A DNA stretch of 64,000 nucleotides from Sipunculus nudus. Lineage: Eukaryota; Annelida; Sipuncula; Golfingiida; Sipunculidae. Both the position numbers and the translations under genes were made by a program. The stretch spans positions 32,885,229-32,949,228 of the forward strand of contig CM049314.1 in assembly GCA_026874595.1 (NCBI GenBank), read 5' to 3'. Below are positions 8,281 through 62,486 of this stretch, in pieces. The notes under the pieces were generated by a model. The model did no database searches, was not told the DNA's origin, and was given only the letters and a program-made list of their open reading frames with translations. How positions within the stretch are numbered: position 1 is the first letter of the stretch; each line of letters starts with the position of its first letter.

Positions 8281-10487
8281 AAGTGACCCATGGGTCATGA
8301 CGCTCGGCTGCCAAGCATGACCTGCAACATCAAGGGCTGGAATTCACAACTTCCTGTCAAAAAAAGGAACCTATTTGCCAATTTTGTTGAAACATTTTAT
8401 GATTATTGAAATATTTATCACATATTTCTAGTTGAAACATGGTGACTTGATGGTCTGAAGCAAAATGTATGGTTATTGAGCTAACAGGAATGAATCACAT
8501 AGCTTAATTGATACCACAAAATACACTGACAAAAGGATTTCCAAGGTGGCTACCTAGCAGATATATTGGATTTCTGACAAGGCTGACATTTGATGTCACA
8601 CATCCTCCAATAACAGACCAAACTTGTGGCAATTTCTCCAAAGAATGTTACATTAATGAATGTCCAAAACAATTCAAAAGGCATGATCAGGTTGGAGAGC
8701 TCTCATATAAAATTTTTCGACATGCAAATGTAAAAAGTGTAAGACCAATATTATTTTTAATTATCATCTTGCTTTTAGGTGGGGTCAGCAGGGTAGGTAA
8801 ACTGCAAAATCTGAAAGAAAAGAAATGCAGGAAGCATCAGTAAACGTCTTGTAAAACTAATAAAGCCATCCAATATCCAGGTACAGACCCACAAATAATC
8901 AGAACAAACACTTGCTGGCATATCTGATGATTTGTGTAAAAAAAAATATTTAGATATCTAAGAAACTAAGTTTGTTACTATGATTCCATAAAATAAACTG
9001 CAAAATGTTCCCATCATCTTTATAAATCAGTAGCTAAACCATAATACAATACTCTAAGTCTTAAGCGTACCTCGGGCAACATAGTGCTTTTGTTATGCTC
9101 TAATGATGTTCTTATCTTTCAAAGGGCTGATACAATGGGAATCATATATCAAGTGTCGCTCACAATTACGGCCACACAGTGAGATGTACAAGTTGGAGTG
9201 CAACGGTTTATAAAAGAAAAATATAGATGATCTACAAAGTAAGTGTTTATTGTGAAAATTCCTGACCTTTGACCTTGGCCTGTTGCCCACATATCAATTT
9301 GATCCTTTCTAGAGTGATAAGTAATTAAACTACTTAAACACTTTAACTACTGACCACTTAAAACTGGAGTAATCACTTGGCAACCAATGTGTGAATAACT
9401 TTGACCTCCAACCTTTAACCTCCTGACCAGCTTACACTTAAATCAATAATTTATTTCTTCAAGCAAAAAGGCTAATAAATATGAAGTTTGAATCAAACTG
9501 AATGATGCATAGTTGGGGCATATGTGAAAGACTGGAGGTTTTGGATAAACAGTTTAGCTTGAAATATGTTCAAAAGCATTTGGGTTTAATACTGTGACCT
9601 TGACCTCTGACCTTTTGAACTCAACATCAATAGAGTTCTTCCCCTATTGGTAGGCCATATAAGACACATGGTAGGTATAGGTTGAAAAGTTTGCCTTAAA
9701 ATGACTCCACATAAGAAGTGGGTGTGGTGAACTTGACCTTTGACCTTAAAATCAACAGGTCTTTTCCCCTGTTGGTAGAGAAGCAATATGTCAATGCTGG
9801 AAGGTTTGGAAGAAAAGTCTGGCTTGAAATGTGTCCACAGCCTTTTTAAAGAAGTGAATCCTGTGATCTTGACCTTTGACCTTGTGACCTCAAAACCTAA
9901 AAGATTCTTCCCCCACTTGGTATGTGAGCCATATGTGAAAGATCAAAGGTTGGGATGAAAGGTTTGGATTAAAATGCATCCACAAGCTTTTCAAAGAAGT
10001 TGGTCCTGTGATCATGACCTTTGACCTCAAAATAATTATGGTTCTTTCCCTGTTGGTAGGTGAGCCATATGTGGAAGATGGAAGGTTTGGGATGACAATT
10101 TTGGCTAAAAAATGCATCCACAAGCTTTTCAAAGAAGTGGGTCCTGTGATCTTGACCTTTGACCTTGTGACCTCAAAAATATTATGATTTTTCCCGTGTT
10201 AGTGGGTGAGCCATATGTGAAAGATGGAAGGTGTGGGGTGAAAATTTAGGCTATAAGAATTAATTCTGGGGGTTCAAACACACCCCGTATTTTGGAGAAT
10301 ATAGGTCATAGTGACCTAATTTCAGGTTTGCAAGATCTTTAAGAACCTCCAATACTGCAAAGCCCTTACTGTTACAATTTGTGCCCTCCTAACGGAGAAC
10401 AGCTGGAGAGCTGGACGGACAGACAGAAGGACGACGGACATAGACACATCGCTATAGCACAGCTTGACTGAAAGGTAGCTGAGCTTA
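8281..10487 (+). mobile_element. Modular element E1 (B-type core)
   Basis: The head has the palindrome TGACCCATGGGTCA and then GCTCGGCTG. About 1.1 kb of head sequence follows, shared with the element at 40441. Next comes an array of about 145-bp monomers carrying TTGACCTTTGACCT (9590-10200). The tail has a GGAC microsatellite, a stem-loop and GCTGAGCTTAAAG. It lies in the last ACER3 intron, antisense to the gene. There is no transposase or helicase ORF, so it is non-autonomous. Confidence 0.85.
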
Positions 10488-12704
10488 AAGCCCAAAAGAC
10501 ATTTTCGCTCCATTTGCCTTTAAAGTTTGTTATCTGCAACTTTTATACATTTTATTTCCATTGTTTTTTAAAGTGTTGCCACAAAAGTATAAGTAACATT
10601 TTTTCTATATATGTGATACAAAAAATTAAAATGCCATAGTTCTTAAAAAATAGTTAAGAACCTCCATAGTATTTGTTTTAAGTCAGACATACCCTATGGT
10701 TGGCTAAAAACTAGCGGGGTTAAAATTTTGTGACTTCCATGTTTCATAGTTTCAAGATGGATTCATTTATGCCATCTTACAAAACAGTAACCAACACAAA
10801 GTATATATATATTATTGTACAATTTTTTATTTGGTGCACAAAATCTTATAAGTTGAACAAGGACTGCAGTGTCACATCAAACACTGGAATCTGTTGTGCA
10901 TTATTGGCCAATAAAAAACAACTAATTGTTATAATATGAGATACCAATAGGGCAACAATATAATTGTTTGTGTAATCAGTGCAGATTGGTCATCTTCTAA
11001 CAATGGTTTTTATTTTCGCAATAATTTCACTTTCGCAAATATTGTGAGTAAGGAACACTACGAACAAAAAGCCAACCGTAGTATTCAACAAGAGGAGCAC
11101 CTGCAATGATTTACTGTTTAGTACTGAAGCACATTCCCCTGGGCTGACTATGTGGAGGGACCCAATTTCCTTTGCAGTCCTTAAGTCACATATACTATAT
11201 TTTATGATCTTTGCCGCCCTGGAGTGAATGGAACTTGTTAAGCGACTCCTGAACAAAACACAGGCTGGATGGCATTATGTGATGTATAGCACGGCCAATT
11301 ACTGTATAAATCTACTGCACCAGATAATTAACTCTAGATTTTATAACATCTAAAATTAATGTTGTAATGTTTTTGTAACCTTACACTTACATCATGCACA
11401 CAATAAGCATTGTGTTGTCCCCTGTGTAAACTTCTTTGTAGCACAAAATGTATACTGGCCCAGTCAATGAAATGGCTCTTAATTGTTGCCTCTGACAGAG
11501 AAACCAAACGTTCTCTCACTGTATTGCACGTATAGTGTCAGTACTGCCACCTCTTGGTTATTTCTATAATTAATTACCACTCTCTGACCCTCTTATTTCA
11601 TCAACTGGTAAACTTGGGCCGTACCGGACAGTCAGCGCCATACATCATCGCCTCGCTGAACTAAGGTCTTTCCCAGTGATGGAGAGAGTAATTATAGTGG
11701 TCTTTCCCAGAATTTTTTTTTTCAAAACCAACATCTGTTATCAGGTAACCACCTTGTGGGCTTCTAGCTTGCTATTTATATACCCATTTAATCAGTCTTA
11801 ATATTTTAGGGTCCTCGGCTATTTTGAGTATGGCAAGACTTTCAACACTATATATAACCCTCAGCCTCAGTGATTCAGTGTGTCGCCGTTTATCAGACCA
11901 TCACTTTTCAAGGAAGGCCGGTTTGAAAATGTATCTCTAGCTCAGCCAATCAGCGTGAGATATTCAGGTCCACACGAGATGAACGCAGTCATGTGCCGGC
12001 TGGCTGAAACAATCAAGGCAATCAGCGTGTTGGCAACTTAACAGGCGCAAGACTTTCAAGTGTAACAAATACACCGTACAAAATAGATGTGACAGTGTCT
12101 ACAGTGCACTTACATTTGGCCCCTGGACCTTAGTGTTCGACAGCAGAGATATATCATAGGACATGAAGGTCCATGTATGGACTTACTAAAAACATGATTT
12201 CAGTGAGAATGTTACCAAGCAGGTTGAGCTGTCTATTGCCATTTGGACCGCTGCTAGCATCCACATAGCATGGCAACAATGCCATTCCCAGGAGGCGTGA
12301 CGGCTTGATATGCAAATGCAAGGAAATCATCAGGAGTCTTGTGACGCCCTAATATGTAAATATCAGGGATTCACCATACGGACTTTACAGGGCTTTAGTA
12401 ATACGAGCTGGTACTTAGTTACGTCTATCGGTACATGGAACAACGTTTTATATTAAGCATTTTAGTAGTCAATGTAAATACACTAAAGCCCAGGCAGGGC
12501 TACACAAAATGACATTTCCTTAGATCTAGGTCTGTGGCTCACTTTAGCAGAGACCTTACTTCAGCAAGCCTGATGGCCAGCTATATCATGTATTTGGAAC
12601 AAGTGCACTTGAGATGGGATTAAAATCATAACACCAAACTAAATCCATCATAACAGTACTAAACAGTACACTGAAATCACAACTGTTTATACATCTTTTT
12701 TGAG
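10488..12704. other. Intronic sequence, nothing recognised
   Basis: No exon or recognisable repeat structure. It is somewhat less AT-rich than its surroundings around 11580-12560. Confidence 0.5.
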
Positions 12705-15023: not shown

Positions 15024-16239
15024 CAATATATAGTTCTTATCGTTTGATTTTCTTCATACCAATATAATAGGCAGTGACATTTCGTGGCCATTTACAATTC
15101 ACAAAGAAAATCTTATGGGCGATATTGAAGTTTTCATGTTAATCAGGACACATTAGCTTGTGAGAGAGTCAGCAACACAGCGTGGCAGGTGTTTTCAGAA
15201 CCATGGCACTAATGGCCAATTTTCCTGTCACCCCTAGTCTCAGATATCAATAGCTACTTACCATAAATATTTCACGTCTACAAGTCTAACAGGAAATACC
15301 CAAATACAAAAACCCCATCATGACATTTCCCTAGGAATCCCTCGTGGAAAACTCAATGCCTTTCCAAAGAAACATAAAAAATCAATTACTCTCTGGTTTT
15401 TGGAGCTTGGAGAATATTTTGCTGCAGAAGTGGTGTTTTCTCCTCTTCCTGTCCTGGGATTATGGCTCATTATTTAAATCTTATACTCCAGGGGATCTTT
15501 TCATCCTTCCTGATTTAAGTATATAAGTAAAAATCCTTTTACTTGTAAAAAGACATGCCAAGGGATTGAAATAACCAACATTAACTTCTCTGACAGCAGT
15601 ATGTTGAGCAGTAAAAGGATATTGGATGTAACAATTTTAGAGCTGACTTAGCACTCCGTGTCATATTTTATGATTCACATTAGAACTAATTTATCCTCCC
15701 TGAACAGAGGAGAGTTTTATAGTGGCTGATGAATTTATTTCAACATAGATATTTGGGTCAAAATTATTTGTTGATATACATTTTAAGGTCCTTACAATAG
15801 TTACACTTTTCTTGTTTTATTTCTTCTGCCCCCGTTTGTGCTAGATTTCCAATATGGCTGATTTTCATAAACTGACCTTTGGCCACCTTATTAGTCACAG
15901 GTCACATATTCACACATTTCTTTCTGACCTTGACCTAATTTCCAAGGTCATACAACCGATCACTTACTGGAGATTTGATGCAATTTCTTTAAACTCACTT
16001 CAACTATCTGCAAATAGATTATCTATCCTCAGTTTGCGCACAGGAAAAAAACATGCATATTAAATGAGGTCAGAGGTCACCAGGCTCCTCTTTGGTGTAG
16101 ATGTGATAACTTGCCATTGAATATTACAGTTTTTGATGAAACTCAAAAGAAATATTAACCAACTTAATATCTCACCTGAGTGTGATATATTCAATGAAGT
16201 CAGAGGTCAGACTTTGGTGGCGCCTTGATGAATTACTAA
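15024..16239. other. Intronic sequence with scattered AGGTCA-like half-sites
   Basis: No exon found. The stretch 15860-16230 contains TGACCTTGACC, CCAAGGTCA and GAGGTCAGAGGTCA, and looks like a decayed relative of the B-type repeats. Confidence 0.45.
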
Positions 16240-18810
16240 CAAGTGGCCCATGGGCCATGACGCTCAGCTGAACTTGAAAATACAAAGAGTGTATTTAAGA
16301 TGTATTTGAAATATAATTTACATCAAATTTTTAATTATTCTGAGGGGTACTTCTGAGCCCCATAGCTCGAAGATTATGGGTAACAGAGAACTAATTTTTA
16401 GGTTTCCACAGAGATATATTCATGAACCTCCTTTGATGTCAAGTAAGAAAATTCCAGGTCCAGCAGTTAGGAATTGTGCCATGTTAACAGTTGACAGTTT
16501 CATTAAAGGTCTAAAAAACACACACAAAAAATCATAAAAAATGGAAAAAATACAGGTGGCACCACCAGTCTGCAGGATGTGATATAACACCCCATGATCA
16601 ATGTTAGTGCACATAACAATGGTGATCAATGCAGTAGTTATTCAGATACTTGAGCTTTTGTATCAACATTTTGATTATTCTGGGGGGGGGGGGGTACTTC
16701 ACAGCCCCATAGCTCAAAGAATATTGGTAACAGAGACCTAATTTCTGGTTTCCAAGAAGATTATTCATGGACCTTCCTAAATTTGAATTGAGAAGATTCC
16801 CGGTCCAGCAGTTCAGATTTGTGCCCTGTTAACATAGCTCATAGGTTATGGGTAACAGAGATCTAATTTCAGGTTTAAAAAAAAACTTTTCATGGGCCTC
16901 CCTGCATGTCCAGAGAGGAGATTCTAGGTCCAGGTGATACAATTTGTGCCCTGTTAACAGATGACTGCATTTTAAGAAGTCTCAAAAATGGAGACAAAAA
17001 TTCGTAAAAATCGAAAAATACAGTTGGTGCCACCAGACTGCAGAAACTGATGAAACATTCCATGATCAATGACCATGCAAAAAATCATGGTGATCAATGC
17101 AGTAGTTATTCAGATACTTGAGCTTTTGAATCAAATTTTGCATTATTCTGGGGGGTATTTCGAAGCCCCATAGCTCGAAGGATATGGGTAACAGAGACCT
17201 CATTTCAGGTTTCCAAGGAGACTTTTCATTGACCTCTCTTAATGTCAAGTAAGAAGATTCCAGGTACAGTGGTTATGATTAGTGCCCAGACAAACGGCCC
17301 GACAGCCAGATGGCCTGACCGACAACAGACAAAGAGTGATAACTACACCTCAGATGATTTACAGTCAGCTGAGCTAAAAAATAGAGAAAAAATGCATAAA
17401 AATGCGAAAAAAAAAAATCCAGGTTGCACCGCCAGTCTGCAGGAACTGATGAAATAGTCTTATATGAATATGCATGCAAAGAATCATGGTGATCAATGCA
17501 AAAGTTGTTCAGATACTGCAGCTTTTGTAAAAAATCTTTTTATTATTCTGGGGGGGGGGGGGGTACTTCGGAGCCCAATACCTCAGAGGATATGGGTAAC
17601 AGAGACCTAATTTAAGGGGTTCCAAAGAGACCTTTTTATTGGTCTCCCTGCATGTCAGGAGAGAAGATTATAGGTCCAGTTGTTACGATTTGTGCCCGGT
17701 TAACAGTTAACAGATGACTGCGTCTTAAGATGTCTAATAAAAAAAAAAATACAGGTGGCGCCACCAGTGTGCAGAAACTGATAAAATATTCCATGAACAA
17801 TATTTATGCAAAGAATCATGGTTATCAATGCAATAGTTGTTCAGATACCTTAGTTTTTGTATAAAATTTTCCATTATTCTTGGGGGAACTTCAGAGCCCC
17901 ATAGCTCAGAGGTTATTGGTAACAGAGACCTAATTTCAGATAAAAAAAAAAAAAAACTTTTCATGGGCCTCCCTGCATGTCAAGAGAGAAGATTCTAGGT
18001 CCAGTTGTTACAATTTGTGCCCTGTTAACAGATGACTGCATTTTAAGATGTCTCAAAAATGGAGACAAAAAATTGTAAAAATTGAAAAATACAGGTGGCA
18101 CCACCAGATTGCAGAAACTGATGAAACATTCCATGATCAATGACCAAGCAAAATATCATGGTGATCAATGCAATAGTTGTTCAGTTACTCAAGTTTTTGT
18201 ATCAAATTTTCCATTATTCTGGGGAGTATTTGGTGCCCCATAGCTCAAAGGATATGGGTAACAGAGACCTAATTTCAGGTTTTCAAAGAGACTTTTTTAT
18301 AAGTCTATTGATTTTTTAAGTAAGAAGATTCCAGGTACAGTGATTACGATTTGTGCCCTGTTAACAGATGATAGTTTCATTGCAGGTCTGAAAAAAAAGG
18401 AAAAAATTCGTAAAAAAATTAAAGAAAATACAGGTGGTGCCACCAGTCTGCAGGAAGTGATGGAACATCCCATGATCAATATTCATGCAAAAAATGATGG
18501 TGAGCAATGCAGTAGTTATTCACATACTTGAGCTTTTGTATCAAATTTTGCATGATATTCGGGGGGGGGGGGGGGTGGTTGTACTTCGGAGCCCCATAGC
18601 TCAAAGGATATGGGTAACAGAGACCTATTTTCAGGTTTCCAAGGAGATTTTTCATGGACCTCTCTGGATGTAAAGTAAGAAGATTCCAGGTACAGTGGTT
18701 ACGATTTGTGCCCTGTTAACGGACAGAAGGCCGGAAGGCCAGATGGCCTGACGGACAACAGACAAAGAGTGATCACTATAGCTCAGATGACTTACAGTAA
18801 GCTAAGCTAA
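16240..18810 (+). mobile_element. Modular element E2 (A-type core)
   Basis: The head has the palindrome TGGCCCATGGGCCA and then GCTCAGCTGA. The core is an array of about 340-bp A-type monomers; the GGTGGCxCCACC landmark occurs near 16553, 17025, 17753, 18094 and 18433. The tail ends GTAAGCTAAGCTAA. An internal tail module (17270-17378, ending CAGCTGAGCTAAA) interrupts the array. Poly-G runs expand at one fixed monomer position (around 16681, 17550 and 18560). Confidence 0.85.
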
Positions 18811-19556
18811 AAACTGAAGGATTACCATAAAACTCATTAAAGAAATTTATAAATCTAGTTTCTTACCTGAATTCAATCCTTGAAAAATTTCTTAGCATAT
18901 TTAATAAGGTCATAGGTCACAAGCCATATGACTGACATATTATGCACTCTTATGGTGCTCTTGTATATAGATCAAAATATTTTTCTTGAAATACCTGACA
19001 TGTGTACATATTTTGAAGGTTAAGAATATTCCAGCATTGTTGTGTAAAAACATCTGAGTAAATTTTATGCAGATCAATTTAATCAATTTTAATTTTTAAT
19101 TTAATTAATCAAATATAATTAAGCATGATTTATGTTAGTAGTGTAAGTAGCATTTTCTTTGCCATAATTAACACTAACAGCCGATAAAAAAGTTTTCACT
19201 CCAGAGGTGTGCATTCACCAACCAATCACTGGCAGCCGCATTCCATTGCCTACAACTATGGTCAAAATGAATATCAGGGGCAAGTTTGTCACTTGTGACT
19301 ATTATCCTGGCGAAAGGTCATTCTTCCATATCAGCTGTTTTCCTACCACAAACATGGAAGGAAGGAAAAAAGAAAAGATAAGAAATTGCCATAGAGGGTA
19401 CCTTAGACCAACTCTCAAAAATGATTGGTGCTTTATAGGGATACAGTTTATCAGGATTTTTTTCTTAACTGTAGGAGTGGTTGATAATTGGATCAAATCT
19501 CTTCCCTCTCTTGATGTATGTACTGACAAGTCAATTCATGCATAGATTGTACTTAC
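18811..19556. other. Intronic sequence, nothing recognised
   Basis: AT-rich. It includes a 112-codon plus-strand ORF (19207-19545) that has no familiar motif and ends just before the ACER3 exon; I do not treat it as a gene. Confidence 0.45.
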
Positions 19557-21040: not shown

Positions 21041-21043
21041 GGT

Positions 21044-21190: not shown

Positions 21191-21315
21191 AACCCTGTGC
21201 ATATAAAACCTGAAATCCAGAAGGCTTAATAATAACATATCATTATCATATGGATACCTTCATCCTCATTCAACAGACAGTGCCACCAATAGGCCATGGG
21301 CCTATCCGTAAAAAA

Positions 21316-24300
21316 CAAGGGACCCAGGGGTCATGACGCTCAGCTGACCAGGAAGACATTGACAAAAGTAATTTTATCATCTGAATGTCAAATTTGAATG
21401 AAATACTTTTTCCAAACTTGACCTTTTGTATAAAATCATCCAATATTCATTGGGGTACTATGGAGCTCTGTAGCATGAAAGATATGGGTAACAGACACCT
21501 ATTTTCAAGGTTTACAAGATGACTTTTCAGGGGTCTCCCAGCATGTCAAAAAATAAAATTCTAGGTCCAGTTATTATGATTTGTGTCCTATTAACAAATC
21601 CAAATGTTTATTCTGTGGGGTATTTCAAAGCCGCATAGGATGAAGGATATGGGTAACAGAGATGTAATTTCAGGTGCACAAGGAGACTTTTCAGGGGCCT
21701 CCCAGCATATCAAGAAAGGAGATTCTAGGTCAAGTCATTATAATTTGTGCTCTGTTAACAGATGACCAAATCTTTATTCTGGGGAGTACTTTGGAGCCCC
21801 AGAGCATGAAGGATATGGGTAACAGGGACCTTATTTCGGGTTTCCATGTAGACCTTTTATGGGCTTCCCTGGAGGTGAGGACAGAAGATTCTAGGTCCAG
21901 TCATTATGATTTGTGCCCTGTTAATATATGACCAAATCTTTATTCTGGGGGGTACTTCAGAGCCCCATGGCTCACAGAATATGGGTAACAGGGACCTTAT
22001 TTCGGGTTTCCATGTAGACCTTTTATGGGCTTCCCTGGAGGTGAGGACAGAAGATTCTAGGTCCAGTCATTATGATTTGTGCCCTGTTTACAGATGACCA
22101 AATGTTTAAAGATCACAAAAGTAGAGAAAAAAAATCGTAAAAAATAAAAAAAATATAGGTGGCGCCACCAATCTCCAGAAATTGATGAAACACTCCATGA
22201 TCAATATCCATGCAAAGAATCATGGTGATTAATGCATTAGTTGTTCAGATACTTGAGCTTTTGTATTAAATTTTGCATTATTCTGGGGGGTACTTCAGAA
22301 CCCCATAGCTCGAAGAATATAGGTCACAGTGACCTAATTTCAGGTATAAAAGGAGAATTTCCATAGACCTCCCAGGATTTCAAGTAAGAAGATTCCCAGT
22401 CTAGCGGTTACGATTGGTGCCCTGTTAACAGACAGACGCCTGGATGGCCGGACGGACGACGGACAAAAGGTGATCCCTATAGCTCAGATGACTTTCAGTC
22501 AGCTAAGCTAAAAATTGAAAAAATACAGGTGGCGCCACCAGAATGCAGAAACTGATGAAACATTTCATGATCAATATCCATGCAAAGAATCATGGTGATC
22601 AATATAATAATTGTTCAGATACTTGAGCTTTTGTATCAAATTTTCCATTATTCTGGGGGGTACTTCGGAGCCCCATAGCTCAGAGGTTATGGGTAACAGA
22701 GACCTAATTTCAAGTTTTTAAGGAAACTTTTCATGGGCCTCTCAGCTTGTCAAGAGAGAAGATTCTAGGTCCAGTTGTTATGATTTGTGCCATGTTAACA
22801 GATGACCGCATCTTATGAGGTCTCAAAAATAGAGAAAAAAATTCGTAAAAATAAAAAAAATACAGGTGGCGCCACCATACTGCAGAAACTGATGACACAT
22901 TCCATGATCAATATCCATGCAAAGAATCATGGTGATCACTGCAATAGTTGTTTAGATACTTGAGCTTTTGTATCAAATTGTCCATTATTCTGAGGGATAC
23001 TTCAGATGACTTACAGTCAGCTGAGCTAAAAACACTTAATGGTCAATATCCATGCAAAGAATCATGATGATCTCCGTATTAGTTGTTCAGATACTTCAGC
23101 TTTTGTATCAAATTGTCCATTATTCTGAGGGATACTTCAGAGACCTATAGCTTGAAGGATATGGGTAACAGAGACCTAATTTCAAGTTTCCACAGGCACT
23201 CTTCATGGGCCTCCTTGCATGACAAGAATGAAGTTTCTAGGTCCAGTTGTTGCAATTTGTACCCTCTTGATAGATAACATAGGTGGCGCCACCAGTCTGC
23301 AGGAACTGATGGAACATCTCATGATCAATATGTATGCCAAAAATCATGACCATCAGTGATGTAGTTATTGAGATATTGAAGTTTTTGTATGAAATTTTTG
23401 ACTACTCTGGGGGGGTACTTTGGGGCCCCATAGCTCGAAGGATATGGGTAACAGAGACCTAATTTCTTGTTTCCATGGAGACTTTTCATAGGTCTTCTAG
23501 TGTGTTGAGAATGAAGATTCTAGGTCCAATCGTTACTATTTGTGCCATGCTAACAGATGACAGCATCCTTAAAGGTCTCAAAAATAGAGGAAAAAATCGT
23601 AAAAAATCGAATGATACAGGTGGCGCCACCAGTCTGCAGGAACAGATGACACATCTCATGATCAATAGTTATGACACAAATCATGTCCATCATTCAAGTA
23701 GTTAATGAGATATTGAAGTTTTTGTATGAAATTTTTTACTTTTCTTGGGGGTACTTTAGGGCTCCATAGCTCGAAGAATATGGGTAACAGAGACCTAATT
23801 TCTGGTTTCCATGGAGACTTTTCATAGGTCTCTCAGTGTGTCCAGAATGAAGATTCTAGGTCCAGTCGTTATGATTTGTGCCACGTTAACAGATGACAGC
23901 ATCCTTAAAGGTCTCAAAAATAGAGGAAAAAATCGTAAAAAATCAAACAATACAGGTGGCGCCACAAGTCTGCAGGAACTGATGGAACATTTCATAATCA
24001 ATATGTATGCCAAAAATCATGACCATCAGTGATGTAGTTATTGAGATATTGAAGTTTTTGTATGAAATTTTTGACTACACGGGGGGGGGGGGGGGTGGTA
24101 CTTTGGGGCCCCATAGCTCGAAGGATATGGTTAACAGAGACCTAATTTCTGGTTTCCAAGGATATTTTTCATGGACCTCTCAGTGTGTCAAGAATGAAGA
24201 ATCTAGGTCCAGTCGTTACGATTTGTGCCATGCTAACAGATGACAGCATCCTTAAAGGTCTCAAAAATAGAGGAAAAAATCGTAAAAAATCGAACAATAA

Positions 24301-25364
24301 AGGTGGCACCACCAGTCTGCAGGAAGTGATGACACATCTCATGATCAATAGTTATGCCACAAATCATGACCATCAGTCAAGTAGTTAATGAGATATTGAA
24401 GTTTTTGTATGAAATTTTTTACTTTTCTTGGGGGTACTTTGGGGCTCCATAGCTCGAAGAATATGGGTAACAGAGACCTAATTTCTGGTTTCCATGGAGA
24501 CTTTTCATAGGTCTCTCAGTGTGTCAAGAATGAAGATTCTAGGTCCAGTCTTTACGATTTGTGCCTTGTTAACAGATGTTTACATTTTGAAAGGTCTCAA
24601 AAATAGAGAAAAAAATTCGTAAAAAAATGAACGATACAGGTGGCGCCACCAGTCTGCAGGAAGTGATGGAACATCTCATGATCAATATGTATGACAAAAA
24701 TCATGACCATCAGTCAAGTAGTTAATGAGATATTGAAGTTTTTGTTTGAAATTTTTTACTTTTCAGGGGGGTAGTTTGGGGCCCCATAGCTGGAAGGATA
24801 TGGGTAACAGAGACCTAATTTCTGGTTTCCATGGAGACTTTTCATAGGTCTCTCAGTGTGTCGAGAATGAAGATTCTAAGTCCAGTCATTATGATTTGTG
24901 CCTTGTTAACAGATGTTCACATTTTTAAAGGTCTCAAAAATAGAGAAAAAAATTCGTAAAAAATCGAAAAATACAGGTGGCGCCACCAGTCTTCAGGAAC
25001 TGATGGCACCTCTCATGATCAATATGTATGCCAAAAATCATGACCATCAGTCAAGTAGTTAATGAGATATTGAAGTTTTTGTATGAAATTTTGGACTTTT
25101 CTGGGGGGGTACTTTGGGGCCCCATAGCTCGAAGGATATGGGTAACAGAGACCTAATTTCTGGTTTCCAAGGAGATTTTTATGGACCTCCCAGGATGTCA
25201 AGTAAGAAGATTCCAGTTCTAGCGGTTACGATTTGTGCCTGGTTAACGAACAGACAGACGGACAGACGGACAGACAGACGGACAGACAGACAGACAGACG
25301 GACGACGGACGACGGACAAAGAGTGATCGCTATAGCTCAGATGACTTTCAGTCAGCTGAGCTAA
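21316..25364 (+). mobile_element. Modular element E3 (large A-type array)
   Basis: The head is CAAGGGACCCAGGGGTCATG followed by GCTCAGCTGA; the palindrome carries one mismatch. At least nine A-type monomers follow, with the GGTGGCGCCACC landmark or variants near 22158, 22529, 22865, 23283, 23620, 23957, 24301, 24640 and 24977. Internal tail modules occur at about 22430-22510 and 23005-23030. The final tail has a GACA/GACG microsatellite (25250-25315), a stem-loop and CAGCTGAGCTAA. It lies in the 14 kb intron. Confidence 0.85.
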
Positions 25365-26330
25365 TAAGTTATTTATTCAAGCAAAAAGACCCATAAATAT
25401 GAAGTTTGAGTCAAACTGAGTGATGCATAGATGTGGCATATGTGAAAGACTGAAGGTTTGGGTTGAACAGTTACACTTGAAATATGCTAACAAGCATTTA
25501 GAACAATTAAATATTGTGACCTTGACCTTTGACTTTTTGACCTCAACATCAATAGGCTTCTTCCCTTATTGGTAGGTAAGCCATATATGACAGATGGAAG
25601 GTACAGATTGAAAAGTTTGCCTAAAAATTACTCCATGCAAGAAGTGGGTGCTGTGAACTTGACCTTTGACCTCAAAATCAACAGGTCTTTTCCCCTGTTG
25701 GCAGAGAAGCCATATCAGTGCTGAAAGGTTTGGAATGAAAAGTCTAGCTTGAAATGTGTCCACAACCTTTTCAAAGAAGCTGATCCTGTGACCCTGACCT
25801 TTGACCTTGTGACCTCAAAATTTTCTATAGGATTCTTCTCCAACTTAGTAGGTGAGCTATATGTGAAAGATCAAAGAATTGGGATGAAAGGGTTGGCTTA
25901 AAATGCATCCACAGGCTTTTCAAAGAAGAGGCTCCTGTGACCTTGACCTTTGACCTATTGACCTAAAAAAAATTATGATCCTTCCCCTGTTGGTAGGTGA
26001 GCTGTATGTGAAAGATGGAAGGTTTGGGATGAAAATTTTGTCTCAAAGAGTTATTTCTGGGGGGTGCAAACACACCCCATAACTTCGAGAATATAGGTCA
26101 CAGTGACCTAATTTCAGGTTTGCAAGGAGATCTTTTTATAACCTCTAAGACTGCATAGGGTTCATGGCCCTAGCCCCTACGGTTACGATTTGTGCCCTGC
26201 TAACGGCCGGACGGCCGGACGGACGGCCGGACGGCTGGCCGGACGGCCGGCTGGAAGGACAGACGGAAGGACGACGGACAAAGACCCATCGCTATAGCCC
26301 AGCATGACTGAAAGTCAGCTGAGCTAAAAA
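25365..26330 (+). mobile_element. Truncated B-type element
   Basis: It starts abruptly after the tail of E3 with TAAGTTATTTATTCAAGC and is nearly identical to 41946-42868 of E7. The B-type head is absent. It has four nuclear-receptor-like monomers, a long CCGG/GGAC microsatellite (26200-26265), and the standard tail ending CAGCTGAGCTAAAAA. That end abuts the head of E4. Confidence 0.85.
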
Positions 26331-35100: not shown

Positions 35101-35148
35101 CTAAAATAAAATGACAAAATTCAGTAAGTAACAGTTACAAAATTTAAA

Positions 35149-39924: not shown

Positions 39925-40440
39925 CTGAAGAAAATGAAAAGATAATTAACTGTATGTTAATTATTAGTTTTCAATTTCATGCTGCTTTAATTAATGACCT
40001 GTTCCTTAATTTGTTATATTGTAATTGCCATGAATTTTATTATACCATTCAAAACATAATAACTGTAACGATCAAATATTTCCAGCAGGTAAAGATAGTG
40101 AAAATACATGTATAATTATATCATTATCAGCAAATATTTTGCTTTTTTATAACTTATTTGTTTCTCCTCAAGTTTGAATCTTGCACTGAATCACCCTAGT
40201 CCCATTATATTTTTTATGCTTTTATGTTACCTGTAAATCAAAGTTTGATGTTATACATAATATCTGCTTTTATATATTATTTACCCATAATATAAGGAAC
40301 AAGAAATTGCACTTTTTGCTATTCCCTGGGGTTCTTTACAATTTAATAATTTAATTTAATTTTAATGCATATTGAATAAATCATGTAATAATGGGTATAC
40401 TCTTGTGTAGTAGTCTGCATTGTGAGACCACAAAAAAGAA

Positions 40441-42868: not shown

Positions 42869-43321
42869 AAATCTAATCCTGCGAATATGATGCCTACCTG
42901 TCATCAACCCTCAGGGTAGAGTCAACATCTGCTGTGTTTATCCTTGAAATTCATGATAAATCTTTTGTATTGAGAATGATGTGTCATATGTGCCCCCTTG
43001 TGATTGTCCCAATTTAAGGAACTACTGTCAGACCCAGGGAAGCTAACCTTTTAAAGTGGGTACAGTTTAGGCCATAAAGCAGTAATTTCAGCAAAATTTC
43101 CTTTTCATTCGAATACATTATCATTTTCTACCCCATCAATGCATGATTAATAATTAATGCACAACCCTGTGAAACACAAAATATTTATTATTATATAATT
43201 TCTATTCCATTACTGGGTTTACATTCTTAATTTTTTTCTAAAAGCTTTTTTTATGCTTTGTTGAAACTGGATACCTATGCCACAGAATTTAAAGATAGGA
43301 GGTGTCGTATTTGATACTTAC
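42869..43321. other. Intronic sequence, nothing recognised
   Basis: Short stretch between the tail of E7 and the donor of the exon at 43322; nothing identifiable. Confidence 0.5.
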
Positions 43322-46849: not shown

Positions 46850-49800
46850 AGCATTTAAATCAATAGGATGGTCCTGTGATTTTTATCTTTGAACTATTGA
46901 GGTGATATCAATATATGGTTCTTCCCGTATTGTTAGGTAATCCCAATGTGAAAGATTTTGGATGAAACATTTACAGAGCCTCCACAATCTTTTTAAAGAT
47001 TTGGGTGTGGTGACCTTGACCACAGACATTGTGATCCCAAAATCTATAGAGTTCTTACATTAGTGGTGGGCTATTAATAAATCAAGTTTGAAATCTATAT
47101 GTAAATTCAAACTGGAGTTTGAACTCATTTAACTTCGACCTTGTGACCCCAAGATAGACAGAAATCATCCCCTACTGGCAGGTGAGCTATATATGTGCAA
47201 GACGGAAGGTCTGGGATGAGCAGTGAGGCTTAAAATGCATCCACAATAGTTTTAAATATTTGATTCATGTGACCTTGACCCTAAACCCCATGACTCCAAA
47301 ATCTAAAGGGTTTCTTACTTTATTGGTGGGCCATAAATAAGTCAGTTTTGAAATCCATATGTCAATTCAAACTGGAGTTATATTCTGGAAACACATTTTT
47401 GAACAGATAGCTCCTGTGACCTTGACCTTTGACCTTGTGACCCATTAATGGCATAAATCTTTCCATGATAGCACTGAGCTATCAGTGCGGGATTGAAGGT
47501 CTTGTAGGTAAAGTATGGCTTAAACAAGGGACCCATGGGTCACGGCGCTCAGCTGATCATGATTGGACTATAAATGTTTCTCCATTGTGATACTATATCG
47601 AGTCGAGAAAGCTTATGAATATCATGGACATGTTAGGCTATTATAAAGGAATGTAATGTAATATGTGAGTAAATGATAAATGAAATTACCTGACTGATGG
47701 ATTAATAGAGTAAAATATAGTGGTTTATTTTTATTTATTTAGGAGGGGTTGAAAATCGTGATATATGTGAGCAAATATGAATGCAATGACAGCAGTAATA
47801 AGCAGTAGTAGAATGATGATAAGGCTATTTGTTGAAGGATCTAAAGTGTATGGTAGTCTGCAAGCTTTCAATTTGACAGATATGAAGTTATGGTTAACTA
47901 TGCTGATGAAGTGATTTATGAATTTGTGACTGTATGACACAATTTCCAATCTCTTTAGTCTTGACAAGGTACATTACTGTGATGCCCACTATGTCTACAT
48001 ATTACACAATATTGACATAATTTCTGGCATGTACAAAGGTACCTATGGATGAATAGTTATACAAAATATTAAAGTATGAATATATCTGATTCATCTTGTT
48101 CTTGCTTACTGAGGCTGACTTTGGGATGGGGTCGGAGAAGGGAAAAGTGAGGGCAGCACGAAGGTGGATGTAGAAATATTCTATTGTAATGTTTTGCATT
48201 TATATAAGAATATGAAAAGCTAAGAGGAAAGGGGCCCCCCTACTTGGTTATAGTAAATTTCTAAATATATGATTGCAAACTAATACTCTGACAAGACTGT
48301 CATGAAGAAAAACAGTAAAGTTTTGAGATACTGTGATGCATATGAAAATTTACAGATGGACAGGCAAGTGGACAGAATGGACTAATACCTTTATTTCACT
48401 TTCAAGGGAATAATGCATTTAAGTTTATATATAAGCCTATTTGTTTTAAGCATATCCACTTTTTCCATTAAGAAGTTTTTATCCGAATCATTTTTTTTTA
48501 TTTACAGGTTTTATAAATTTTAATAAAAAACTGAAAATATAAGTTAAAATATTAGAATTGTTGCAAAAGTTGCAATCATTATATATACAGAGTAAAAAAC
48601 TGAAACTATAAGTTTAAATATTAGAATTGTTGCACAAGTTGCAATCATCATATATCCAGAGTGTAGTTCATATTGGGTCATATTATGCATACACATATAT
48701 TTTATTATTTTTAAATCATAAATGTTTAAACTGAATTTAAAAGAAAATAATGCCACAACATGGCATCTACAAGAATATTCCTTGAATCACTATCAAAAAG
48801 TTTTGCACACTGGAGTTTTCAGTACATGCTTAATTTTATTCACCAAAATAAAATAAAAGATTCAGTAAATTTGATAAAATAAAACATCTTTTCAAATAAA
48901 GTATACACACTGTTGGTTGATTGAGGGACAATATCATTGTGCTAATTACTATCCCAGTTTTAATATATTACTGCAATTAATAGTCAATTTCACACCTGGT
49001 GAAGTTTTTACTCTTCTGAAGTAAGGAATTACTTATCTGATAAACATCCACACTTTCACAGCTATACACCACTTTGTGGACACAATTTAATGTACACTTT
49101 AATCATTGTAACCCTGGTGGTACAATACAAAATCTAAAAAGTAGCATAACCTAGAATAAGAATGAATCAAACACAGAAAATAATAACATTCATCTAGTTT
49201 ATGCACCATCGGGGGGGGGGGGGGGGGTGCTGCTGGTAGTGGCCAAGCTTAGCCAAGGCAAGCTGCCTGGGGTGTGTTACATAATGCAGGTGAAGGCTGT
49301 AAGTACTACTAGGTGGGCTAGATGTAAACAACACTTGACATGGTGTATGAAAACGTGAATAAAAGCTATTCTTTCCAATCAATTTCTTTGAAATTTCAGA
49401 TTTTAAAAGATTAAATCCTTATGTTTATATGCTGTGAAAATTAAATCAACAGTGCCAAAGTTGGACAAAATTTAAGGTATTGATTTTTTATTTATGGAAA
49501 TAACTTGAAAAAATTGCAAAATTCATATCTAATTTTGGGTAAACAATTGAATCTTGATTAAATAAAGTTATATTCCTGAAAAAAAGTCTCAGATAATTCT
49601 CATGTTAGGTGAGTAAATAAATTTCCTGATTTTTAAAAAAGCTGCATTATATTTTGGCCCATAACTTCAAAATAATACCCAATACTGACCTAATTTTTGG
49701 TATGTTCATAGAAAATGTATGAAAGAATGTGAATACTAAATATGATCAAAAACAGATCAGTGGTTTTGATATAAGGCAGCCTTGAAGTGTAACAATGGCT

Positions 49801-51170
49801 TTTTTTATGGAAAATGGAGGTTTTTCCTTAATATCTGGAAGGAACGAAGTCCTAATGATCTAATTTTCAGTTTGGTAGGAGATTTGGGGACATCTAAAAT
49901 TATGCCAACAGCCTGGGGTGCATAGAGATGTGCACTGAATGACCTACAGTCATCAAAGTGGACTGCTTGACAATGTAAGGGAATACAACAAGAGCCTCTA
50001 AAAAATTCAATAACTAGCCTTATTTTGCAGCTTTTATTTTCAAATTTCAGATTTTAACAGATTAAATCCTTATGTGTACATGCTGTGAAAATTAAATCCA
50101 CAGTACTTACAGGAAAAAAACGTGCCTTGGCCAAAGTTGGGCAAAATTTAAGGGACCAATTTTATATTTTTGCCAATATTTAAAAAATTTTAACAGATTT
50201 TGATCTAATTTTTTGTATAAAATTAAATCCCTACCTTTAACACTTTTGGTCTTAAGTGACCAAATATCTTTCCTGATTTTTTTACAAAGTCCATTATATT
50301 TTGGCCCATAACTTTTTAAAATTAAACAATACTGACTTAATTTCTGGCATGTACATAGGAACTATATAGAGGAATATTTATGGTAAATATGAAGAAAATC
50401 AGATGAGTGGTTTTGATATTAGGTAGTCCTGAAGTGTAAAAATAGATTTCTAATAAAAAATTTAGTTTTTTCCTTAATATTTCGAAGGAACGTAGTCCTA
50501 TTGACCCAATTTTTGGCATGGTAGGAGATTTTGGGGACATCTAACTGTATGCCAAATTTCAGATTCGTAGGTCCAACAGTGTCGAAACGTGCCAGTCTTA
50601 CAGACAGACATCCAGACGGACAGACGGACGGACGGACGGACTGACGGACGGACAGACTTACGGACGACGGACAATGGACCACGACTATAGCTCAGATGAC
50701 TTATAGTCAGCTGAGCTAAAAAGCATTCACAAACTTTTAAAAGATTTAGATCCTTTTACCTTGATCTTTGACTCCAAAAGTCTAGAGTTTGTTTTTGCTC
50801 AATTTATTATCTTGAAACTAATTTTTGAACAGATAGCTCCTGTGACCTTGACCTTTGACCTTATGACCCAAAATCAATAGAAATCTTCCCCCTTTGCAGG
50901 TGTCCTATATGTGCAAGATGGAAGGTCTGGCATGAAAAATTGCCTTATAATGCATCCACAAACTTTTTTAAAATGTTGGTCATGTTACCTTGACCTTTGA
51001 CCTCATGACCCCAATATCTGCAGTGTTCTTGCTTAAGTGTTGGGCCATATGTATATTAAGTTTGAAATCCATATGTCAATCCAAACTGGAGTTATTATCC
51101 GGAAACCAATTTTTGGATAAACTGATGGTCAGACGAACAGGGTGATTTCTATATGGGACCCCCTTATTCA
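46850..51170 (+). mobile_element. Decayed B-type array interrupted by E8
   Basis: Diverged B monomers (TGACCTTGACC with variations) occupy 46850-47524 and resume at 50723. The standard head and tail are missing. The E8 junction lies within the conserved GGCTTAAA..GCAT.CACAA segment of the monomer. Confidence 0.7.
47525..50722 (+). mobile_element. Modular element E8 (C-type)
   Basis: The head is CAAGGGACCCATGGGTCACG followed by GCTCAGCTGATC. It is nearly identical to E4 without the E5 insertion. A poly-G tract is at 49211-49227. The tail has a long GGAC microsatellite (50610-50660), a stem-loop and CAGCTGAGCTAAAAA. Confidence 0.88.
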
Positions 51171-56185: not shown

Positions 56186-56186
56186 A

Positions 56187-57206: not shown

Positions 57207-57286
<80 letters not shown>

Positions 57287-57290: not shown

Positions 57291-57291
57291 A

Positions 57292-58513: not shown

Positions 58514-60612
58514 TATATCCATGTACATTGTTATGAATATAAGTATATATATAAAATTACAACTATCTCTTTAATCTAGGAGATTGTACAAGCTGAAAAA
58601 TCTTTTAAAACAAAATGTGGATTTGCGCCTTTTAATAAGCATGAATAATTTTGATGCTGAAGAACAAACTCACTGACGAAAGAATTCATTAACGTTTGGT
58701 TACAAAGAATGTTTGTCTTAACTGACTCAATTCAAATCTAATTTGCTACAAGTGGTGTACTAATGAGCCCAATAATTAGGGAGGGAATAGTCTAATTGGA
58801 AGGCTAAAATATACATGCAACACAGGTGTTCAGAGTTAGAATATAGAACAATGATTCCAATAATGATCTTTAATGATACAGGAGGGTGAAGCTTTGAGAA
58901 TGCCATATCAATTAGTGGTATTAATTGCTTTTCCAAGGTGGATAAAACAGGTTTAGACCTTGTAAACAGACTAATAATCATGTCTTTTAAAGGTCTTCCA
59001 CGTCATTATGACATTCCAATTTTGCATATTACAATGAACAACTAGTTCCCAGTAGAGAATGTCAAATAATTTGAGATTTCAGAGCATTTAACCATACTTT
59101 TAATGTAGGTGCAATCACTTTTTTGGCCATATAATTTCAAACATTATCCACCAAACCAAAGTTTCTATTTACCAAAATGTAGAGAAACTTCTTAGCTTTC
59201 ATAATTTCAGACATGCCAAGTGTCAGCCATTTGGTGTGAGACTCTTGCATTTACCCCTTGTCTCCAGTCTCACACTGAGGGACATAAATCTAATGCATTC
59301 TTATACCTGGCCCTGTCATCCCTAGCTTTCAAGTTTAAACCAAACGTCTTACCCTTCATGATCCCATGGCATTCACGGTAGTGTTATAGCACAAAATTAG
59401 TCCATTACTTTAATACTATGTGATCACGCTATCAGATGCTAAAATGTGTATGTTTGTACATGTATTTGTATAAAAATTTGTATACATATGACCTATATGT
59501 GTGCTTATAGCTGGTAACCAAATTGTACAACATAACACATTGTGTAGGGATCTTATACGTATTTGTAGCCTGACATGGTCCATCTTTTCTGTTTGAATAA
59601 TAATAGGTGTAGGAAACAGGGATGGGGAAAGGGGGGGGGGGGTACAACATAGATATTTTAAATTTTGTCTTAAACATGGAGGATTTTATACCGAAGATGA
59701 GTACCATTTTGTCATTAAATGTTCTTTATCTGAATTGAAAGATATGCCTTTCATTTCATTAATGTAGACTATAAATTATGTCACAATTAACAAGCTTTCA
59801 GTATTTGTATATTTTGCATTTATTAAAAGAGAGTCATTTCTAAATGATTCTTTGAACTAGTAAGTGAACAATTTTCCATGTATCATGTTTTATGTTGTTA
59901 TGAAATTTATTCTATGTAATTACCATAAGTGGTGGGCGTCGGTTCCTTTTTCATAATCAATCATAGGTTTATGATCGATTATTAATCGGTTCAGACAAAT
60001 CAGGGTTGTTATTTTTCCCGGGAAAAACTAGTTTGTCTGACAAATATATGCAATTATCACAGAAATATGAAATTATCTGTGAAACTGTACCTGCGTTTAC
60101 CTAGCAGGTATTCTCCTCTTGCACAAGAATGTTCCATCCCTTCCATGTATATAGACACAATCAGACTAATTTTTAAGGATCAAATTTAACAATCGGAAAC
60201 GTCCGGTAATATCTTTCATCAGGGGAATTAAGAGCATCTAAGAATATTAGGCCTTTAGAGGGGCTGTTTTTCTAGCACATGAATGCAGATTTTTCAGGCC
60301 GGGTTAGCCCAAACAAAGAATTTTTTTAAAGGATGGCCTAAACAGCGGCACCTTGCTTCGATTATTTCTAAGAGAATCTTGCAAAATTGGCATAGACCTG
60401 GAGAATTTATGGGGTATTTTAATGCCATCCCACCCATATTTTGCAATATACATCTCGTACGAAAAATCTCCGCTAATTCTGCAGCTCCCTGCGAGTTCAC
60501 AGATAATAAGTTTAATAAGTCCTCCATTCTCACATCTACGAGTCATACTCAGTTACATATGGAAGTTATTTGGGAACACTGACTCATTATATAAAGCACG
60601 GAATGTGTTAAA
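58514..60612. other. Intronic sequence, nothing recognised
   Basis: It contains a poly-G tract (59632-59642) and several short overlapping ORFs at 60283-60670 with no familiar motif. No first exon of ACER3 found. Confidence 0.45.
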
Positions 60613-62486
60613 CAAGTGGCCCATGGGCCATGACGCTCAGCTGAATTCAAGGAATGTTGAACAATCATGAATTTTGTGAAAAGTCCTTAGAAATGGGTTT
60701 CAGTGGGCTTTTGGACAGATGACAACTTCATTTGAAGGTCTCATAAATAGAAAAAAAAATGCTTTAAAAATTGAAAAAAAATACAGGTGGCGCCACCAGT
60801 TTGCAGGAACTGATGTAACACTCCATGATCAATATGCCTGAAAAGAATCATGGAGATCAATGCATTGGTTATTCAGATACTGGAGTTTAAATTTGTATCA
60901 AATTTTTAATTATTCTGAGGGGTACTTACTACGAAGGATATGGGTAACAGAGACCTAATTTCATGTTTTCACAGAGACTTTTCATGAACCTCCCTTGATG
61001 TCAAGTAAGAAGAATCTAGGTCCTGCGGTTACGATTTGTGCCCTGTTAACAAATGACAACTTCTTTGAAGGTCTCAAAAATAAAGAAAAAAATTCGTAAA
61101 AATTGAAAAAAAATACATATGGCGCCACAAGTTTGAAGGAACTGATGGAACATCCCATGATCAATATTCATGCAAAGAATCATGGTGATCAATGCAGTAG
61201 TTATTCAGAGACTTGAGCTTTTGTATCAAATTTTGCATTATTCTGGGGGGTACTTCGGAGCCCCATAGCTCCAAGGATATGGGTAACAGAGACCTAATTT
61301 CAGGTTTTCAAGGAGATTTTTCATGGACCTCCCTGGATATTAAGTTTGAAGATTCCAGGTCCAATGGTTATGATTTGTGCCATGTTAACAGATGACAGTT
61401 TCATTGAGGTTTGAAAAAAAAAGAGAAAAAATTTGCAAAAAATTTGAAAAAAAATACAGGTGGTGCCACCAGTCTGCAGGAAGTGATGGATTATCCCATG
61501 ATTAATATTCATGCAGAGAATCTTGGTGATCAATGCAGTGGTTATTCAGATACTTGAGCTTTTGTATCAAATTTTGCATTATTCTGGGGGATACTTCAGA
61601 GTCCCATGGCTCTGAGGTTTTGGGTAACAGAGACCTAATTTTCAGTTTCCAAAAAGACTTTTCATTGGCCTCTCTGCATGTCAAGAAAGAAGATTCTAGG
61701 TCCAGCCCTCATGATTTGTGCCCTGTTATCAGATGACCGCATCTTTTAAGGTATCAAAAATAGAGAAAGAAAATTGTAAAAATACAGGTGGCGCCACCAG
61801 TCTGCAGAAACCAATGAAATACCCCATGATCAATATCCATGCAAAGAATCATGGTGATCAATACATTAGTTGTTCAGATATTTGAGTTTTTGTATCAAAT
61901 TTTCATTATTCTGGGGGGTACTTCAGAGCCCCATAGCTTGAAGAATCTGGGTAACAGAGACCTAATTCCCGGTTTCCAAGGAGACTTTTCATGGGCCTCC
62001 ACACTGGCCAAGATAGAAGATTCTAGGTCCAGTATTCACGATTTGTGCCCTGTTAACAGATGTCCACATTTTTAAAGGTCTCAAAATTAGAGAAAACAAT
62101 TCGTAAAAATCGAAAAAATATAGGTGGCGCCACCAGACTGCAGAAACTGATGAAACATTCCATGATCAATATCCATGCACAGAATCATGGTGATCAATGC
62201 AATAGTTGTTCAGATACTTGAGCTTTTGTATCAAATTTTCCATTTTACTGGGGGGTACTTCGGAGCCCCATAGCTCAGAGGTTATGGGTAACAGAGACCT
62301 AATTTCAGGTTTCCAAGGAGATTTTTCATGGTACTCCCAGGATGTCAAGTTAGAAGATTCCAGGTCCAGTGGTTACGATTTGTGCCTGGTTAACGGACAG
62401 ACAGACGGCAAGACAGACAGACAGAGGGACGACGGACAAAGAGTGATCGCTATAGCTCAGATGACTTTCAGTCAGCTGAGCTAAAA
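60613..62486 (+). mobile_element. Modular element E9 (A-type core)
   Basis: The head has the palindrome TGGCCCATGGGCCA and then GCTCAGCTGAATTC. Five A-type monomers follow (landmark near 60786, 61120, 61459, 61787 and 62124). The tail has a GACA/GACG microsatellite, a stem-loop and CAGCTGAGCTAAAAA. Confidence 0.87.

What the first reader, a model, noticed from the sequence alone, without database searches (positions are those of the whole stretch)
8281..62486. Family of modular elements with shared ends but three unrelated interiors
Nine elements share a head (AACAAG, a palindrome on CCATGG, then GCTCAGCTGA) and a tail (GGAC microsatellite, stem-loop, TCAGCTGAGC, A-run). The head GCTCAGCTGA is the exact reverse complement of the tail TCAGCTGAGC. 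The interiors are A-type 340-bp monomers, B-type 145-bp monomers, or C-type 0.5-0.7 kb units. Subterminal inverted repeats, a 3' hairpin and central tandem repeats are the hallmarks described for Helentron-associated elements (HINEs), including bivalve pearl elements. Assigning them to that class is inference.
Basis: partly seen in the sequence, partly recalled or inferred. Interest (0 to 1): 0.75.

Follow-up and report, generated by a model that had tools for sequence, protein, structure and literature searches.

The report
Rolling-circle jumping genes, one-way cluster
The nine repeats are non-coding passengers of rolling-circle jumping genes (Helentrons), full-length enzyme-coding relatives of which sit in the same genome, and unexpectedly copies lying near one another tend to point the same way.

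Summary
In detail: nine elements share both ends, all on one strand. They are Helentron-associated elements (HINEs). A C7 Helentron carries the C-type head; its other end was not reached. No partner for B was found among five surroundings read. Modular HINEs with exchanged satellites are already published for oyster (PMC7492417).

Unexpected: orientation. Ends are strand-balanced genome-wide, yet in the window 13 of 13 tails and 9 of 9 heads agree; spaced neighbours agree about 91% at C1 0-3.3 Mb and 67% at 3.3-26 Mb. The one repeat used as control shows no agreement but is too sparse: HINEs thinned to its density are hardly distinguishable from it. Strand-guided insertion (fork or transcription) is neither shown nor excluded; local copying remains a serious alternative.

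The parts
8279..10489 (-).
   Evidence: head profile hit at 8276 (degenerate inner motif), tail profile hit at 10429; 145-bp monomers
16238..18813 (-). A1: A-type HINE, 340-bp monomers, one 3' end and two 5' ends (internal one at 17321)
   Evidence: A monomers match the right part of the C17 Helentron at 77%
21314..25367 (-). A2: A-type HINE with one 3' end and three 5' ends (at 22454, 22977, 25307)
   Evidence: 1172 bp at 93% identity to the C17 Helentron
25368..26329 (-). B2: B-type copy with a 5' end but no 3' end, abutting A2 and C1
   Evidence: 968-bp alignment at 93% identity to B3
26328..31604 (-). C1: C-type HINE, interrupted by C2
   Evidence: close relative of C4 (95% over 1003 bp, 91% over 1963 bp)
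27325..29221 (-). C2: C-type HINE nested in C1; C4 supplies the empty site (TTTT|AATAAAA, no target duplication)
35146..37770 (-). C3: C-type HINE
40439..42870 (-). B3: B-type HINE
47523..50722 (-). C4: C-type HINE lying between B-like fragments (46872-47444 and 50804-51117)
   Evidence: head stretch identical over 36 of 36 bases to the C7 Helentron
60611..62487 (-). A3: A-type HINE, about five 340-bp monomers
   Evidence: 82% to the C17 Helentron right end
62454..62487 (-). example 5' end: T-run, then the subterminal repeat and its inverted repeat forming a hairpin (the 58-base end folds at -10.9 kcal/mol, z -3.1); a GTCC-type microsatellite follows inwards
60611..60644 (-). example 3' end: subterminal repeat TCAGCTGAGC then palindrome GGCCCATGGGCC near the 3' terminus
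   Evidence: folds at -4.5 kcal/mol, not better than shuffles: 80 of 200 fold as well

Best explanation
These are non-autonomous Helentrons (HINEs). An enzyme-coding Helentron of about 15-16 kb elsewhere in the genome makes a Rep (HUH)-helicase-endonuclease protein. Shown here: shared ends, Helentrons with the same ends, the domains in the C17 copy, the A-type satellite inside the Helentron itself, and one insertion without target duplication. Inferred: the catalytic steps, mobilisation in trans, and that the different interiors mark different Helentron families (A, C, and B with partner unknown) whose ends have stayed alike. Extra 5' ends are best explained by 3'-truncated tandem or composite copies. 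On top of this, insertions cluster, and neighbours tend to share orientation; why is not settled.
For: Two Helentron copies, C17 and C1: homology starts at AACAAG (position 3478 and 2805 of the joined stretches), 98% identity over 7 kb, and runs 15-16 kb to A-type monomers, microsatellite and tail. The 2342-codon C17 frame has Helitron_like_N (98.7 bits, cut-off 28.9), PIF1 (82.4, cut-off 25.9), Exo_endo_phos (21.0, below its 24.5 cut-off), Herpes_teg_N (47.9, cut-off 25) and DUF6570 (63, cut-off 24.3); it contains the stretch FQQRGSPHIHML, which looks like the Rep HUH motif (recalled). Head pattern 8,132 and tail pattern 20,508 exact matches genome-wide, reversed-pattern control 0 for both. 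Empty site for C2. The 5' end folds better than shuffles (z -3.1; 3 of 200 as good). The layout matches the published HINE layout (section 7 of PMC7492417; passages of PMC4067079).
Against: No partner for B among the five Helitron_like_N surroundings read, of at least 143 matches; two of these five (C4, C13) showed no head in the bases read. The C7 Helentron's 5' end was not reached in about 15.7 kb, and its homology to window C elements beyond the head is only 178 bp at 77%. The endonuclease match is below Pfam's cut-off. The C1 Helentron's frame is in pieces. The 3' palindrome does not fold better than shuffles. Only one empty site was read, and its cut point is ambiguous by a few bases because of T/A runs. 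Activity was not tested.
Confidence: 0.93

Rival explanations
1. On orientation: agreement reflects strand-guided insertion. The HUH transposase uses single-stranded target DNA at replication forks (as IS200/IS605 do in bacteria), so copies inserted in one replicon point one way.
For: Agreement beyond one element's length: thinned to 16 kb or more, neighbours within 50 kb agree in 39.5 of 43.5 at C1 0-3.3 Mb and 42.1 of 63.1 at 3.3-26 Mb (means of 20 thinnings; median permutation p 0.0 and 0.008). Different end subtypes agree, not thinned by distance: 20 of 22 non-C heads that have a C head within 50 kb (22 of 27 within 100 kb); 25 of 27 A-type tails that have a C-type tail within 60 kb. Nine 10-kb stretches picked from plus and minus blocks hold 20,258 versus 2,660 and 0 versus 19,541 HINE-like bases in the two senses (they were picked because listed ends lie in them). 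Precedent in bacteria (passages of PMC5371812).
Against: Away from the C1 end the agreement is modest and about 0.5 beyond 100 kb. The TTACAG tail subtype alone has 43 runs against 47.6 expected (p 0.19), B tails on C1 p 0.057. HINE-masked GC and AT skews do not change sign between plus and minus blocks. The control is too sparse to separate from HINEs thinned to its density (8 of 15 against 0.61 within 200 kb). No replication data.
Confidence: 0.15
2. On orientation: agreement reflects transcription units. Insertion into, or survival within, transcribed DNA is strand-biased at gene scale (tens of kb).
For: On C1 3.3-26 Mb the agreement is mostly within 50-100 kb, which is gene-like (inference).
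Against: Runs of up to about 1 Mb at the left end of C1 are long for single genes. Gene strand could not be tested: of 106 window frames of 62 codons or more outside the elements, the 60 longest were looked at by eye only and none looked clearly coding.
Confidence: 0.3
3. On orientation: agreement is a by-product of local copying, that is tandem or segmental duplication, nested insertion beside or inside an earlier copy, or one transposition event that carries several ends.
For: Multiple 5' ends per element and C1 abutting B2's tail; about 2-kb spacing of some C1 tails (15.2308-15.2348 Mb); many within-stretch direct repeats on C1 and segments outside the element mask shared by L018 with L020 and L021. 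For the TTACAG tails beyond 10.4 Mb, 9 of 10 pairs at 5-20 kb agree but 3 of 7 at 20-50 kb and 3 of 7 at 50-100 kb. Composite elements with two 5' termini are described for Fusarium (passages of PMC5148889).
Against: Agreement persists at 16-50 kb after thinning in the combined list; three types mix within one cluster; in the window's self-comparison the repeated segments lie within the elements or B-like fragments next to them, not in other flanks (not tested against the whole genome).
Confidence: 0.45
4. On identity: the elements are MITEs or foldback elements moved by a DDE transposase.
For: Palindromic ends and short inverted repeats; pearl elements were first called MITEs (PMC7492417 passage).
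Against: The same ends flank a Rep-helicase frame; no target-site duplication at the one empty site.
Confidence: 0.02

Closest known systems
Cg_HINE elements of Crassostrea gigas (PMC7492417; abstract start, passages, sections 7 and 9 seen)
   Same: 5' subterminal repeat plus inverted repeat, microsatellite (GTCY/GTCC in several), satellite array, 3' subterminal repeat and palindrome; T-rich targets without duplication; a group with related flanks but divergent monomers
   Different: There no autonomous partner could be linked; here one is found for A. Orientation is reported there only as 'both orientations'; local agreement is not mentioned in the sections seen
Helentrons and HINEs of Drosophila and mites (PMC4067079; passages seen)
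   Same: Rep-helicase with C-terminal endonuclease, subterminal repeats, 3' palindrome, variable T-runs, no target modification; some copies with microsatellites or tandem repeats
   Different: Other sequences; here a herpes-tegument-like domain is fused in (known in Helentrons, PMC9741609 passages)
IS200/IS605 orientation bias (PMC5371812; passages seen)
   Same: HUH enzymes (recalled), one-strand insertion, orientation tied to chromosome position
   Different: There orientation follows replication direction; here no replication map exists and agreement is strong only in places
Maize Helitrons inserting near other Helitrons (stated in PMC12477314 and PMC3288121 passages; original paper not read)
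   Same: Clustering near relatives
   Different: No orientation agreement stated in those passages

Membership tests
HINE / Helentron | Same ends as an enzyme-coding Rep-helicase-endonuclease element in the genome | tested here: met
   Met for A: C17 and C1 copies carry head, tail and A monomers. For C only the 3' end was matched. For B none found among five surroundings
HINE / Helentron | Rep (HUH) and PIF1-type helicase domains | tested here: met
   Helitron_like_N and PIF1 above curated cut-offs in the C17 copy
HINE / Helentron | C-terminal AP-type endonuclease | tested here: inconclusive
   Exo_endo_phos E 0.0003, 21.0 bits against a 24.5 cut-off, residues 1281-1464 of the 1499-residue piece
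HINE / Helentron | Subterminal inverted repeats at both ends | tested here: met
   GCTCAGCTGA / TCAGCTGAGC, 16 sites against 0.06 expected
HINE / Helentron | Palindrome or stem-loop near the 3' end | tested here: met
   CCATGG-centred palindrome in 6 of 9 window heads; C2 and C3 read CTATGG and A2 CCAGGG; its folding energy is not better than shuffles
HINE / Helentron | Insertion at T-rich sites without target-site duplication | tested here: met
canonical Helitron | 5' TC, 3' CTRR, palindrome about 11 bp from the 3' end, A|T target (as stated in PMC4067079) | tested here: not met
   ends are T-run/AGCTC and CTTGTT in true polarity
ssDNA transposons with replication-directed orientation (IS200/IS605-like behaviour) | Orientation follows replication fork direction | not testable with these tools
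   local agreement seen, no replication data; skew test gave no support

The most novel reading that the evidence does not exclude
Helentron insertion in this genome is strand-guided by a chromosomal polarity such as fork direction, so that HINE orientation is a fossil map of replication (or transcription) direction; the C1 left end would then be a domain of about 1 Mb with one polarity and an abrupt switch between 1.15 and 1.24 Mb.
Probability: 0.17. Interest if true: 0.85.

Novelty: new member of a known kind. Interest (0 to 1): 0.5.

Why it matters
It ties a satellite-carrying HINE type to an enzyme-coding Helentron in the same genome, which the oyster study could not do, and shows that the A-type satellite sits inside the coding Helentron itself, so it could spread with it. 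It also corrects the polarity, which matters for any mechanism. The local orientation agreement, if it survives a whole-genome test, would give a way to ask whether eukaryotic rolling-circle transposons choose their strand at replication forks.

Tried and rejected
Disfavoured: strand-biased A/T tracts as the cause of orientation; unmasked A5/T5 runs are 47/63 in the C1 plus stretches, 67/150 in the C1 minus stretches (92 of the 150 T-runs lie in L024) and 127/111 in the window, no consistent match. No support: GC/AT skew of element-masked DNA (C1 plus -0.003/-0.009, C1 minus -0.035/-0.031, window -0.004/0.027). Not usable as local controls: a dispersed repeat with 146 copies and two SINE-like patterns (700 and 269 matches). 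In one search all 100 listed places had no mismatch, so it adds little. Literature search for end and monomer motifs: 88 papers, 15 listed, none relevant by title.

Too strong at first: my reading as megabase domains everywhere rested on the first 100 listed places of C1; later lists show strong long-range agreement only at C1 0-3.3 Mb. Note: its library contains the window's own elements, so same-sense coverage in the window is partly self-match; only the zero opposite-sense coverage says something there.
Full report
What is there. The window (G000:C9:32885229-32949228, stated) holds nine elements with both shared ends and one more with only the tail-side end. GCTCAGCTGA is found 16 times against 0.06 expected. 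Profiles built from window sites and run on both strands give 9 heads and 13 tails, all on the same strand; reverse-strand rows of 11-24 bits are mirror hits on the same sites. The interiors differ, but A and B share up to 260 bp beside the tail at 71-74% identity.

The enzyme-coding partner. The Pfam model Helitron_like_N has 143 matches in G000, a lower bound because 150 of 195 candidates were scored. I read 8-9 kb around and downstream of five of them and followed three upstream. Of the five, three carried the shared head downstream of their coding frame (C17, C7, C1); the C4 and C13 copies did not within the bases read. The C17 and C1 copies align from the head onwards at 98% over 7 kb, and the homology runs 15-16 kb until A-type monomers, GGAC microsatellite and the tail hairpin. 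A2 of the window matches that right part at 93% over 1172 bp. The C17 frame is 2342 codons long; its domains are listed under best explanation. The C1 copy's frame is in pieces. The C7 Helentron has the C-type head, identical over a 36-base stretch to that of C4, and 178 bp at 77% identity to C2; its 5' end lies beyond the 15.7 kb read. No partner for B was found among these five.

Polarity. In one search the frame runs against head-to-tail. Section 7 of PMC7492417 describes HINEs as 5' subterminal repeat, complementary inverted repeat and microsatellite (GTCY/GTCC in several), then the satellite array, then 3' subterminal repeat and palindrome. Reverse-complementing the window elements gives this order: T-run, AGCTCAGCTGACT-GAA-AGTCATCTGAGCT hairpin (58-base end -10.9 kcal/mol, z -3.1), GTCC-type microsatellite, monomers, TCAGCTGAGC, CCATGG palindrome. 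The frame is then sense. So the window elements are on the minus strand in true polarity. Genome-wide, exact 5'-end patterns (20,508) outnumber exact 3'-end patterns (8,132); the two patterns differ in stringency, so the ratio is only suggestive. It fits 3'-truncated inner copies of tandem arrays (stated in the introduction of PMC7492417) and composite elements with two 5' ends (PMC5148889 passages).

Insertion. C2 sits inside C1, and C4 is a relative of C1 without it. The empty site reads TTTT|AATAAAA; no target duplication is seen, and T- and A-run lengths differ by one and two bases. This is one case.

Clustering. Six 10-kb stretches lying about 15-165 kb from the window (L027-L032) contain no HINE-like bases by alignment, although the profiles give one weak tail (17 bits) and one weak head (24 bits) there; L033, 231 kb away, has 1,011 such bases with a tail and a head in the sense opposite to the window. 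So the window is a local cluster.

Orientation. Pattern lists print only the first 100 places, so the map covers C1 from its left end: general heads to 10.3 Mb, general tails to 3.2 Mb, TTTCAG tails to 15.8 Mb, one head subtype to 25.9 Mb and TTACAG tails to 30 Mb, plus B tails. Exact matches only. Genome-wide the strands balance (4,039/4,093 heads; 10,399/10,109 tails). On C1, the 100 heads form 26 runs against 45.9 expected and the 100 tails 11 against 26.5; none of 20,000 shuffles had as few. These counts include several ends of one element. After random thinning to 16 kb or more (458 distinct hits of 520 listed; 158 and 284 of them in the two regions; 20 thinnings, 500 permutations each), neighbours within 50 kb agree in 39.5 of 43.5 at 0-3.3 Mb, 42.1 of 63.1 at 3.3-26 Mb and 28.6 of 39.8 at 10.4-26 Mb; median permutation p 0.0, 0.008 and 0.004 (largest 0.006, 0.024, 0.014). 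Different end subtypes agree with each other, not thinned by distance (20 of 22 within 50 kb; 25 of 27 within 60 kb). Nine stretches picked from plus and minus blocks because listed ends lie in them hold HINE-like DNA almost only in the block's sense, with one clear opposite element in L020.

Results against. Beyond about 100 kb agreement at C1 3.3-26 Mb is about one half. Merging same-strand hits within 16 kb, a strict treatment that removes agreeing neighbours, leaves no significant run structure within 0-3.3, 3.3-10.4, 10.4-16 or 16-26 Mb taken singly (950, 1355, 300 and 604 of 4,000 shuffles as few) and 72 of 4,000 for 3.3-26 Mb together. Single subtypes away from the end are weak: TTACAG tails 43 runs against 47.6 (p 0.19), B tails on C1 p 0.057 (84 of the 100 listed). 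TTACAG tails beyond 10.4 Mb agree in 9 of 10 pairs at 5-20 kb but 3 of 7 at 20-50 kb and 3 of 7 at 50-100 kb. Masked GC and AT skews do not flip between plus and minus blocks. Local direct repeats are abundant in the C1 stretches, so duplication remains a serious explanation.

Controls. A dispersed repeat taken from window 43530 gives 43 runs against 46.1 expected and agrees in 2 of 4, 3 of 9 and 8 of 15 neighbours within 50, 100 and 200 kb. It is much sparser than the HINEs: HINE ends thinned to its density agree in 0.61 within 200 kb, hardly different from 8 of 15, so this control cannot settle the matter. Non-HINE repeats shared between different C9 stretches and the window match 11 times in the same and 11 times in the opposite sense, leaving out the tandem array shared by L032 and L033 and matches within one stretch. 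These rows are not independent.

Literature. Modular HINEs with exchanged satellites are known (PMC7492417: abstract start, passages, sections 7 and 9). Helentron anatomy: PMC4067079 (passages). Tegument-like deubiquitinase in Helentrons: PMC9741609 (passages). Orientation tied to replication in bacteria: PMC5371812 (passages). Helitrons near Helitrons in maize: PMC12477314 and PMC3288121 (passages). Bivalve rolling-circle content: PMC10294476 (passages). Helraiser mechanism: PMC5876387 (passages; 'orientation' does not occur). My searches for a report of Helitron or Helentron orientation agreement (at most 20 papers of each were listed) showed none that I recognised from titles, abstract starts or the passages opened; most subscription papers are not held, so this does not show that none exists.

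Host.

Verdict. Identity: Helentron-associated elements, confidence 0.93, a new member of a known kind, with the coding partner found for the A type. Local orientation agreement: real in the combined C1 data and in the window, extent and cause open; local copying or gene-scale bias are at least as likely as fork-guided insertion.

Noticed in passing
window 12700-13213: 33-bp tandem array of about 15.6 copies, 97% alike, open in several frames.
   Followed up: no
window about 21040-21120: tRNA-like SINE head (box-B-like GGTTTGAACCC, recalled) just left of A2; 700 matches to its head pattern genome-wide with up to 2 mismatches.
   Followed up: partly
window 43530-43617, 43786-43873, 45083-45160: Short dispersed repeat present in both orientations, sometimes in same-strand pairs about 250-500 bp apart elsewhere; used as a control.
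   Followed up: partly
L012 (C17 Helentron, residues 63-210 of the read piece): Herpes_teg_N domain (E 1.6e-12) and DUF6570 in the Helentron protein; such deubiquitinase domains are reported for Helentrons in PMC9741609 (passages).
   Followed up: partly
G000 C7:48525832-48588283: Three Helitron_like_N copies about 30 kb apart on the same strand with equal frame length (839 aa), possibly a duplication.
   Followed up: no
L024 (C1:1331000-1340999): Tandem-repeat-rich stretch with 92 T-runs and no A-runs of 5 or more in its non-HINE part.
   Followed up: no
A-type and B-type monomers, e.g. window 60785-60800 and 25800-25815: Recurring GGTGGCGCCACC palindrome in A monomers and TGACCTTTGACCT-like direct repeats in B monomers (read), which recall nuclear-receptor half-sites (recalled, not tested).
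   Followed up: no
L007 (C4:36166000-36174999): A different Helitron group with frames of about 2230-2250 codons in near-equal copies on C3, C4, C8 and C11, without these ends in the stretch read.
   Followed up: no
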